This document shows, one piece after another, positions 53,601 through 63,620 of a DNA stretch of 64,000 nt (positions are counted from its first letter, which is position 1; each line of letters begins with the position of its first letter). Under the pieces are notes generated by a model. It ran no database searches. It saw only the letters and a program-made list of their open reading frames with translations, and had not been told where the DNA came from. Location: the NCBI GenBank assembly GCA_002189035.1, contig NEEC01000009.1:620001-684000 (forward strand), written 5' to 3'. A program made the position numbers and the translations under genes. Source of the DNA: Utricularia gibba (lineage: Eukaryota; Streptophyta; Magnoliopsida; Lamiales; Lentibulariaceae).

Positions 53601-55878
53601 ATGGCCGGAAGGCCCTTTCAATTCATTTGTCGTCATCGCATTTTTTCTTCCATTCCTCTAATCCGGGGATTCGTACACTTTCCGGTCGCTGTTCATCAGC
53701 AAATTAGTCCCTTTCCCCGGAGAGATATTTCGCCGCCGCTGCAGTCGCAGCAATTATCAACGACCATCGTTCAACCCCCTGCGGCGTCGGTGACTGGAAC
53801 TATGGCTCAGAAGATTGGGAAATCCATACGACGACCGGGTGCCCAGTCGAAGGCCCGAGTATACTCCGATGTCAATAGCGTTCGTCCGAAGGAGTATTGG
53901 GATTATGAGTCTCTTGTTGTTCAGTGGGGTAATTGTGGTTGGTCTTGCTTTTACTTTCGTTTATTTTTTTTTCGACTTGGTGTTGATGTTCTCGTGCCGG
54001 TTCTCAGCGAGCAGGACGACTACGAGGTGGTGAGGAAGGTGGGTAGGGGCAAATACAGCGAGGTTTTCGAGGGTGTTCACATCACGGACAATGAGAAGTG
54101 TGTCATTAAGATCCTTAAGCCTGTCAAGAAGAAAAAGGTAACCCAGATTCCGTGTTCTGCCTTCTTTTCTAGTTTTTTTGGCGTTTGTTCATTTCTCTAA
54201 ATTTAGCTGTGGTCTGGCTAAATACGCATGGCTAAAACTTTCCCGGAGTGCGAGCTAATGTATTGGCTTACCTTTTGAGAGCTGTGTTATCCTGATATGC
54301 AATTGATGTTAGGGGAGTTGGAATTTGTTTGCAGATAAAGAGGGAGATAAAGATTTTACAGAATCTTTGTGGTGGACCTAATATAGTGAAGTTGCTTGAT
54401 ATTGTAAGGGATCACCATTCAAAAACACCGAGTTCATATTTGAGTATGTGAACAACACTGACTTTAAGGTGTTGTATCCCACACTTACAGACTACGACAT
54501 TCGATATTACACCTACGAGCTCTTAAAGGCACGCATTCTTTTTATACATATCATATGTGAATTTGACAGCGTGCTCTTTTTGTTGGATTAAGGGGCTAAA
54601 CATTTCATGTTTGCATGTAGGCGTTAGATTATTGTCATTCTCAAGGTATAATGCACCGGGATGTCAAGCCACATAATGTGATGATTGATCATGAGCAGCG
54701 TAAGCTTCGGTTGATAGATTGGGGTCTTGCTGAATTTTATCACCCTGGGCAAGAATATAATGTTCGTGTTGCTTCGAGGTTCATAACCTATCATTACCCA
54801 TGATTTTTTTTATCAGCAATTTGCATGAAACAAGACGAAGCTTTTATTGTTAGAACGAAGTTTGTTCAATTCATTTTTGAAGGTGTTGATCAGATTCAAT
54901 CCCTGCATTTTTTGGGTGCAGGTACTTCAAGGGTCCTGAACTTCTTGTTGATCTGCAAGACTACGATTATTCCTTAGATTTGTGGAGTCTTGGCTGTATG
55001 TTTGCTGGGATGGTATCCATCTTCTTCATTTTTCTGTGATAGGCATTATGAAGCATATTGTTTGTTCTTGTTTGAGGGGCTTTGCCTCTGTGATGCACAC
55101 GTATTCGTTGATTTACTTATGTTCTGATCATCTCTTCATCATCTTGCAGATTTTCCGCAAGGAGCCTTTTTTTTATGGCCATGACAATCATGATCAGTTA
55201 GTAAAGATTGCAAAGGTACATCAGTTATGATGGATATGGATTGCTCCTTGATAGGCTACTTTGAATGAACTTGCCATTATCATACCCAAAAGGATGCTGA
55301 ACTTGATGATTTCGACAGGTATTGGGAACAGATGAGTTGAATGCTTATTTGAACAAGTATCGGTTGGAATTAGACAACAATCTGGCTGCTCTTTTGGGAA
55401 GGTTTGTTTCCTATAATACCGTTGGATTTCTCTGTATTGTCAGAACTGGGTTATTTGCTGATACAACGTACCTGTTCACTGAAAACTAGGCATAGCAGGA
55501 AACCATGGACAAAGTTTATCAACGCTGATAATCAGCATTTGGCCGTCCCTGAGGTAGGCAACCACTGCATTCGGAACCTAGAAAAAAAATCAACCCATAC
55601 TTCTATACCATTGAGCTTGCTTTTTTCTTTTTTTTTTTCTTTTTAAACTATGAAGGCAATAGATTTTGTTGACAAATTGCTGCGATATGACCATCAAGAG
55701 AGACCAACTGCAAAAGAAGCAATGGTATCATCTTTTGCTCCATGCACTCCCTGCTTTCCTTCCATCCTCCTCATCTCTTAGAATGCTTCCCAAACTCCAC
55801 CTTTGCACTTTGCAGGCCCATCCTTACTTCTACCCCATACGGAACGCCGAGAACCGCCGGGCACGTGGCCACCAGTAG
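53601..55878 (+). CDS. Plastid-type casein kinase 2 alpha, reading frame broken twice
   Basis: CK2 alpha with a ~65-residue N-terminal extension of transit-peptide type ([17 protein letters not shown]..., rich in Ser/Arg and poor in acid) leading to [20 protein letters not shown], as in chloroplast CK2 alpha, which phosphorylates plastid transcription factors. All exons can be found: [52 protein letters not shown] with [60 protein letters not shown], and AHPYFYPI to a stop at 55876. Two defects exist: the exon 1 donor (53929) has TGGG|GT where TGGGG|GT is needed for frame, and at 54431 one base is missing (agttcata) after KTPS. Everything else is intact and conserved, so I favour sequence error over a pseudogene. 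Confidence 0.82.
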
Positions 55879-57700
55879 GAATTTTTTCAGGTTCGCAACA
55901 ACCCTTCTTCTTATATCCTGCTGTGCTGCTGCAATTCCCATTGAAAAAGATGATCTCCTCCCCTTGACAAAATGATCACTGGTTGTCGTTGTATTCATCA
56001 TTTTGATTCAGATCCTGATTCCCGGGTACTATACCAATGAATCTGTGAGGAGAATGAATAAGGAGGAGTCTTTGCTGGTTCCCTTGAGTTAATGAAAAAC
56101 TAACAAATACTGTTCCCTTGTACGGTTGGAAGAGAAGTTAAGGCCCACCCCCTTTTGTTGACAGCGAGTCACATGTACCCCTCATCCCATCCCATATCAC
56201 ACAAACCTCACTTTGCTGATAACAGCATACATACCTCCCATGCAATAACTAAGGCATGTTTTCAGTGCTTATTCATTTTGCCTTAAGAATGAGAATGGGT
56301 GTTTAGTAGAAAGTGTTAACACTGAATGAAAATGCAACACTAATTTATTTGATAAATGACAAAAGTGTCCTAATATAAAAAATGTAAGTGTTTTCATTTT
56401 ATTTATCTTAGATTAATGATATTAAAGTTTAAATTACTTAGAAACACAATAGTAAATAGTACATACTTATTACAAGACATTATTCTACGACTTGGGATGA
56501 TGGTATTTCGGTCACATGGGTAAAACAAAAATTAAAAAAAAAAGGTTAAATCATTTCTATCATTTCCTTGACTCTACCGATAACCATCTATCGTTTGACA
56601 ATTTTAAAGTTATCTTTTAATTAAGTATGTTTTTATCTAATTTATTAATTATTAATTTTCAGTGAGATTTTATTTTTTTTACATTAATAAAATAATAAAT
56701 TTTAAAATAAACATATCCTAATGATATACTAATAAGATACTTCTAAATTTGTAATATATGTATCTCCATACTCGTATCCATACTTACCCATACCCTTGCT
56801 TTGTAGCTTAGATACCAAAAAGTAGCATGCTTAGTCCCTATTATTTGGTGTACCATGCATGATAAAATCCCCAAAGTTTGGGTATATAATTCTCATTATT
56901 TTACTATTTGAAAAAAATTATTATCACCACCAAATTTTGAAAATTAGAGTTTGATGATGGAAATCAATTTTTTATAATGAAAAATAGTGGGAAACTGAGT
57001 ATACATTTGATTATAATATAGATTGACTATGCATAATTTTAAAATAATTGTGATTAACAATATTTTTAAAAAAAACTAATTAATCATTTGGGTAAACATT
57101 GTGGAATATTTACATGATTTTCTTACTATAAAAAATGAAATTTTTTAAAAAAAATTCATGCACACTCTAGTTGAGTGTAAAATTATGTTTGATAGTTTAA
57201 TGTATAAGATTTATATTCAAGTTTACATACACATAGATGTTTAATTAATTAATATATGCATATCAATCTTGTATTATTATACACAAATGAAGAGGAATAA
57301 GAATAATTATATTTATATCAATCACATATTCATATTTCTATTATTAAATATCAAATATTACATGCAATTAATTATAGATATACTTAATTAGGTTATATTT
57401 AAATATACTAATACTTTACTATCACACTATTTCTAATAAGTTTAAAAAATGAATCCAATCACCATATTTGGTAATATCTAGAAAATAAATAAAAATTTGA
57501 AAATTTTCCACCCTACATATAGTTAAGTTGATGGTGTCGGAAGTATTAAAATACTTTTTTTAAAAAAAAAAAGAAGAGCAGACATCTGAAAGGCATTTGA
57601 TGCTACCTGGGTAGGGAAGACATTAAAAAAACTTACTGATGACGAAGAGGTAAAAACACAAGATAATCAGTCACAATTTCAACTTAGTCCAATAGCTGTG
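55879..57700. other. 3' flank of CK2 alpha, then AT-rich intergenic DNA
   Basis: Roughly 350 bases of probable 3' UTR and flank followed by very AT-rich sequence without a supported frame. Confidence 0.5.
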
Positions 57701-62127: not shown

Positions 62128-63620
62128 ATGGTTGCGGAGGAAGACGACGTCGCCGTCGTGGTGGTTGTCCGTGAGTACAACGAGAAAAACGACCGGGAGG
62201 CGGTTGTGGATGCCGAGTCCCGCTGCGAGGCCGGCGGCTTCGGGGGAAACTCTCTCTGTACACCCATCTCCTGGGTGACCCCTCTGCCGCGTCCGTCATT
62301 CTCCCGCGTATCTCATGCTCGTAAGTCCTGCTATTTCCTTCTTCTGCAATTCTCCGGTGGTGGACTGGAATGGAAGAAGAATTTTTATTTTTTTCGTATT
62401 TCGCAGGTTGCGGAGATGGAGGTTGTCGGTGGGGGAGAGGATAAACAGAGGAAGGAGATAGTGGGCATGATCAGGGGTTGCTTAAAAACCGTAACTCTAA
62501 ATGGGAAGTCGCCGGAGAGCGGTAAACAAGGCGGCGTTCAACGAACTCCGGCCACCAAAGTCGGCTACATTTTGGGCCTCCGCGTTTCTCCATCTCATCG
62601 GTAAACACGTATCTGTCTGTGTTGTTATTCTCCTCCATCCCATCCAGTAATAATTTAAAGAGTGCTTGCTGGCTGATTTACCCACTCACTCCCTCGTAGT
62701 CGTGGGGACAGGACAAAAACAGATCCCCTGAAATTTCCATTCTTTTTCCAATTTCAATTTTTGTCTCCAGGAGAATGGGAATCGGGCTGAAGCTTGTTCG
62801 CAGAATGGAGCTCTGGTTTCGGGAAAACGGCGCCCACTTCTCCTACATCGCCACTGAAAGCGATAACATACCGTCCCTGAAACTCTTCACCACAAGATGC
62901 GGCTACTCCAAGTTCCGAACCCCTTCGATTCTCGTGCAGCCGGTCTTCGCCCACCGGATTAAACCCAATAAGAAGGTAGCCGTCATCCGTCTCCCCCAGA
63001 GCGACGCCGTTTTCCTCTACCGGAGCCGTTTCTCCACCGTCGAGTTCTTCCCCGCCGACATCGACGCGGTGCTGAATAACAAGCTCAGTCTCGGGACCTT
63101 CGTAGCCGTGCCCATTGGATCCTACGATCAGAATTCCTGGCCCGGGGCTGCCGCGTTCCTGGCGGCGCCGCCGGAATCATGGGCGGTGCTGAGCGTGTGG
63201 AACTGTAAAGACGTATTCCGACTGGAAGTTCGCGGAGCGTCGCGCCTGCAGAAAGCGGTGGCGAAGACGACGAGGGTAATGGACCGGGCGTTCCCTTGGC
63301 TGCATCTCCCCTCCATACCGAAGCTATTCCGTCCGTTTGGGCTTCATTTCCTCTACGGGATCGGAGGCGAAGGCCCGAGCATGAACACCTTCGTCAGAGG
63401 GCTTTGCAGGCTCGCCCACAATCTGGCCCGCGACCACGGCTGCGGTGTGGTGGCCACCGAAGTAGCCCAGCGAGACCCCCTGCGGTCCGGGATCCCGCAC
63501 TGGGAAATCCTCTCCTGCGACCAGGACGTCTGGTGCATCAAGAGCCTCGCCGAAGGCTTCAAAGACTGGGTGAAATCGCCTCCGGGAACCTCCATTTTTG
63601 TTGATCCTCGGCAAGTATGA
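62128..63620 (+). CDS. HOOKLESS1-like N-acetyltransferase (GNAT), exon 1 frame broken twice
   Basis: HLS1-family GNATs control apical hook formation and ABA/sugar responses, probably by acetylating histones. Start MVAEEDD at 62128 leads to VVVREYNEKNDREAV. Exon 2 (62407-62600) holds KEIVGMIRGCLKTVTLNGK and VGYILGLRVSPSHR; exon 3 (62771-63620) completes the acetyl-CoA loop HRRMGIGLKLV and carries YIATESDNIPSLKLFTTRCG, EFFPADIDAVLNNKLSLGTF, PPESWAVLSVWNCKD and the family C-terminal block PHWEILSCDQDVWCI, ending VDPRQV-stop. In exon 1 the expected segment KLSLYTHLLGDP, then CRVRHSPAYLML, is present but in three different frames: a base is missing in the G-run at 62242-62246 and another in the C-run at 62279-62282. 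Exons 2-3 are intact. Confidence 0.85.

What the first reader, a model, noticed from the sequence alone, without database searches (positions are those of the whole stretch)
53601..62290. Single-base deletions, mostly in homopolymers, break two otherwise intact genes
The plastid CK2 alpha gene lacks one base at its exon 1 donor G-run (53925-53929) and one at 54431-54434; the HLS1-like gene lacks one base in a G-run (62242-62246) and one in a C-run (62279-62282). Each deletion is followed at once by conserved family sequence in the next frame, and no other defect is seen. Real pseudogenes drift everywhere, as the NET2-like copy does. This pattern is typical of long-read consensus errors. If so, other genes here (for example the unresolved 5' end of the RING gene) may be affected too.
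Basis: partly seen in the sequence, partly recalled or inferred. Interest (0 to 1): 0.6.

Follow-up and report, generated by a model that had tools for sequence, protein, structure and literature searches.

The report
Likely consensus errors in plant genes
Two plant genes here look broken by tiny reading-frame slips, but the same slips recur across conserved genes of this assembly, and a doubly assembled stretch shows them arising in the consensus, so they are most likely errors of the assembled sequence and not real gene losses.

Summary
The frame breaks are present in the given sequence. The CK2-alpha gene (53601-55875) lacks one base at the exon-1 donor G-run and one near 54431-54434, against both a paralog and a second CK2-alpha gene in the same window. 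The HLS1-like gene has two frame breaks in exon 1 against its paralog. One correction: at 62242-62246 two relatives are two bases shorter, so that lesion is -1 or +2. The error reading is supported. CK2 shows dN/dS 0.03, no in-frame stop and intact splice sites. Elsewhere in the genome, seven broken GRAS/HSP70 genes carry ten frame breaks, all minus one base, with no plus-one and no stop. GRAS genes break about once per 3-4 kb, which predicts about four breaks in this window's coding sequence. A stretch assembled twice (C316/C412) differs by 1 substitution and 10 indels, all deletions in the small contig, and one splits a GRAS ORF that is whole in the other contig. The genome fits Utricularia gibba (PacBio/HGAP). 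HLS1 is the weaker case: its copy also evolves somewhat faster. No reads were available, so this is inference, not proof.

The parts
53601..55875 (+).
   Evidence: exon-by-exon alignment to paralog L002 and translation; Pkinase PF00069 4.8e-63; 84 CK2-alpha PDB sequences match the paralog
53925..53928 (+). G-run of 4 at the exon-1 donor; 5 in both other CK2-alpha copies; one base short
54431..54434 (+). AGTT; one base short against both other CK2-alpha copies; not a long homopolymer
62128..63620 (+). HLS1-like (GNAT) gene, 3 exons, frame broken twice in exon 1
   Evidence: translation and paralog comparison; GNAT PF00583 2.5e-13
62242..62246 (+). G-run of 5; frame break of -1 or +2 (17 nt where two relatives have 15)
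62279..62282 (+). C-run; one base short against the paralog
44645..47148 (-). second CK2-alpha gene of the window, no frame break within exons, used as a local reference
   Evidence: tblastn hits exon by exon

Best explanation
The frame breaks are residual consensus errors of a long-read assembly: single bases dropped, most often at short G/C runs. The CK2-alpha gene, and with less certainty the HLS1-like gene, are probably intact in the plant. Shown: the breaks exist, relatives read through the same places, the broken genes are otherwise conserved, the same deletion-only breaks recur across the genome, and a doubly assembled locus differs in just this way. Inferred: that these particular four sites arose the same way, and that the genome is the PacBio/HGAP assembly of Utricularia gibba.
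For: CK2: dN/dS 0.03 overall and 0.027 downstream of the second break, 345 codons, no in-frame stop. Control genes L039, L040, L041, L042, L048, L049, L055: ten frame breaks, all fs-1, none +1, no in-frame stops. GRAS family: 45 gene clusters over 47.3 kb, 24 intact in one frame, about 11-14 minus-one breaks (table). C316 (38 kb contig) against C412: 4128 nt aligned, 1 substitution, 10 indels all missing from C316; the ORF is 615 aa in C412 and is split into 229 + 412 aa in C316. The CK2 paralog on C402 itself lacks one C of a C-run in its N-terminal extension. G000 has 100.09 Mb in 516 contigs, close to the U. gibba PacBio HGAP assembly (581 contigs, N50 3.4 Mb, 88x; PMC5793159). Deletion errors in long-read assemblies follow homopolymers of 2-8 bases and fragment genes (PMC12007338).
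Against: No reads could be mapped. Several highly conserved genes are unbroken (four HSP70 genes; EF2-like frames of 775-1040 aa; a 794-aa subtilase and a 547-aa GT47 frame in this window), so errors are not everywhere. Most broken genes have an intact paralog, as real loss after duplication would also give. The HLS1-like copy changes faster than its paralog (24 against 12 unique residues, chi2 4.0) and its first lesion may be +2. One HSP70 break is shared by C241 and C304. The doubly assembled locus is on a small contig, which may have thinner coverage than C505.
Confidence: 0.86

Rival explanations
1. Both genes are truly young pseudogenes, one copy of each duplicate pair being lost after whole-genome duplication.
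For: Each has a paralog that reads through the sites. The HLS1-like copy is mildly accelerated. Homopolymers are also slippage hotspots in vivo (general knowledge).
Against: Strong constraint on CK2. No nonsense lesion in any of the broken genes read base by base, and only minus-one changes; real decay also gives stops, insertions and longer deletions (general knowledge). Two young breaks per gene and nothing else would need two very recent losses.
Confidence: 0.08
2. The HLS1-like gene alone is a real pseudogene or diverging copy, while the CK2 breaks are errors.
For: Relative-rate excess 24:12; first lesion may be a +2 change, which is unlike the minus-one pattern.
Against: 282 codons of exon 3 are open, omega 0.16 against the paralog; canonical splice sites; the second lesion is the usual C-run minus one.
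Confidence: 0.15
3. Unusual splicing removes the CK2 break at the exon-1 donor.
For: Other GT/AG pairs can restore the frame on paper (32 combinations).
Against: The combinations printed (30 of 32) drop conserved residues around VQWGEQ or add intron-coded ones, none uses the donor position shared with the paralog, and the second break at 54431 lies inside an exon and stays.
Confidence: 0.02

Closest known systems
Homopolymer deletion errors of PacBio/ONT consensus sequences (gene-fragmenting indels)
   Same: Single-base deletions, often in short runs, that split otherwise conserved ORFs; recur genome-wide; seen in a small redundant contig (PMC12007338)
   Different: One HLS1 site may be +2; read-level proof is lacking here
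Unitary or duplicate pseudogenes by frameshift
   Same: Frame breaks in one member of a paralog pair
   Different: No stops, no splice loss, no insertions, low dN/dS for CK2

Membership tests
Long-read consensus error | Excess of single-base deletions over insertions and nonsense changes in conserved genes genome-wide | tested here: met
   10 fs-1, 0 fs+1, 0 in-frame stops in seven genes; GRAS table
Long-read consensus error | Same locus assembled twice differs by such deletions with few substitutions | tested here: met
   C316 v C412: 10 indels, all in C316, 1 substitution; no second copy exists for the window genes themselves
Long-read consensus error | Accurate reads disagree with the assembly at the sites | not testable with these tools
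   no reads held
Long-read consensus error | Location in homopolymers | tested here: met
   3 of 4 sites in G/C runs of 4 or more, which hold 2.9% of CDS bases
Pseudogene (CK2-alpha) | Relaxed constraint, further lesions (stops, splice loss) | tested here: not met
   dN/dS 0.03, no stops, splice sites as in the paralog
Pseudogene (HLS1-like copy) | Faster evolution than the paralog | tested here: inconclusive
   24 v 12 unique residues, chi2 4.0; omega 0.16
CK2-alpha | Kinase domain with HRD and DWG motifs | tested here: met
   HRDVKPHN and DWG present in the read-through; PF00069
HLS1-like | GNAT domain and a C-terminal half shared with the paralogs | tested here: met
   PF00583; 66% and 45% identity to two copies in exon 3; the HLS1 name itself rests on recall

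The most novel reading that the evidence does not exclude
The single-base deletions are real: this small-genome plant has a genome-wide one-base deletion bias at short runs, with many conserved genes broken or tolerated.
Probability: 0.04. Interest if true: 0.75.

Novelty: not a real feature. Interest (0 to 1): 0.15.

Why it matters
Gene-loss claims from this assembly, DELLA and other GRAS genes included, could be inflated by such errors. The practical value is a warning: check frame breaks in this genome against accurate reads before calling a gene lost.

Tried and rejected
Looked for a second assembled copy of the window genes: none in G000. Alternative splicing to rescue CK2: possible on paper only. 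KCS, tubulin and GTP_EFTU tables were not used for the rate because introns split the matches. The apparent in-frame stop at 49767-49769 in the NPH3 gene lies in an intron-like stretch with GT and AG ends, so it is not a break. The PNAS paper of the U. gibba assembly, looked up by a DOI from memory, is not held. L052/L053 (HSP70, C241/C304) share one break and were left out of the counts as a possible true lesion.

Full report
What was checked. The finding names four one-base deletions in two genes. I compared each gene with its relatives inside the same genome (G000, 100.09 Mb in 516 contigs; the window is C505:620001-684000).

CK2-alpha. The best paralog lies on C402 (L002; 78% DNA identity over the first 900 bases). 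The global alignment shows one G fewer in the window at the exon-1 donor and one base fewer at 54431-54434. Everything else in the coding exons from the internal ATG onward stays in register. The window holds another CK2-alpha gene on the minus strand (about 47148-44645). It has no break within its exons, has five G at the exon-1 donor, and reads through the second site. So two relatives agree against the window sequence. The paralog on C402 lacks one C of a C-run in its N-terminal extension, so the same kind of lesion is found in both extended copies. Between the window gene and the paralog, dN is 0.0138 and dS 0.455 (ratio 0.03), with no stop in 345 codons; downstream of the second break the ratio is 0.027. 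Against the maize-type CK2-alpha chain 2pvh I count by eye three residues changed only in the window copy and one only in the paralog, which is no clear sign of drift.

HLS1-like. The paralog on C413 (L006) has an open exon 1; a third, more distant copy lies on C1. Two breaks are present in the window's exon 1. The C-run break is one base short. The G-run break is not settled: the stretch between TGCGAG and the following lysine codon has 17 bases in the window and 15 in each relative, so it may be two extra bases and not one missing. Exon 3 is open over 282 codons, omega 0.16 against the paralog with near-saturated dS, and a relative-rate count of 24 to 12 (chi2 4.0) shows mild acceleration. 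This gene is therefore the weaker half of the case.

Is it a genome-wide pattern? GRAS genes mostly lack introns, so their frame breaks are easy to see. Of 45 GRAS clusters covering 47.3 kb, 24 are intact in one frame; many of the others change frame by exactly minus one at a join with no room for an intron. I count about 11-14 such breaks, or one per 3-4 kb; this is an estimate from a table, and some may be true pseudogenes. With a frameshift-aware alignment I read seven broken GRAS and HSP70 genes base by base: ten breaks, all minus one, none plus one, no in-frame stop, in genes that include three DELLA-type copies and HSP70s with dN near 0.02 (DNA contexts). Only about half of the ten control breaks abut a run of three or more of the same base (read by eye).

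Direct sign of the source. One GRAS locus was assembled twice, on C412 (2.57 Mb) and on the 38-kb contig C316 (for lengths). Over 4128 aligned bases they differ by one substitution and ten indels, every indel being missing from C316. In C316 the ORF is split into 229 and 412 aa; in C412 it is 615 aa. Allelic difference would give mostly substitutions and indels in both directions. This shows the assembly process making such breaks, though in a small contig and not at the window genes. A second redundant pair, C241/C304, shows 16 substitutions and 2 single-base indels, so it looks like a true haplotype or duplicate and not the same pattern.

Source of the genome. Size, contig number and contig lengths fit the Utricularia gibba PacBio assembly made with HGAP (581 contigs, contig N50 3.4 Mb, 88x; PMC5793159). 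That the 3,424,836-base contig C255 equals the published N50 is from memory. Deletion errors after runs of two to eight bases are described for long-read assemblies (PMC12007338).

Verdict. Observation partly confirmed (one lesion may be +2), interpretation supported, not proven. The thing itself is an artefact of sequence quality and of low biological interest.

Noticed in passing
window 44645-47148 (minus): A second CK2-alpha gene about 6 kb from the broken one, on the opposite strand, with no frame break within exons.
   Followed up: partly
L002 (G000:C402), about 1680-1710: The CK2-alpha paralog lacks one C of a C-run in its N-terminal extension, so its extension is out of frame with the kinase part.
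   Followed up: partly
L040, L041, L042 against L017: Three DELLA-type GRAS copies have minus-one breaks near the same QWPALLQAL...FRLTGI stretch; one copy (L017) is intact.
   Followed up: partly
L052 (C241) and L053 (C304): An HSP70 gene has the same frame break in two contigs that differ by substitutions only toward one end; a possible true lesion.
   Followed up: no
window 63813-63962: A stretch just downstream of the HLS1-like gene has weak matches (69-83%) at a dozen other places of the genome.
   Followed up: no
G000:C1:2666923-2677598: Four GTP_EFTU matches with the same score lie within 11 kb, on both strands.
   Followed up: no
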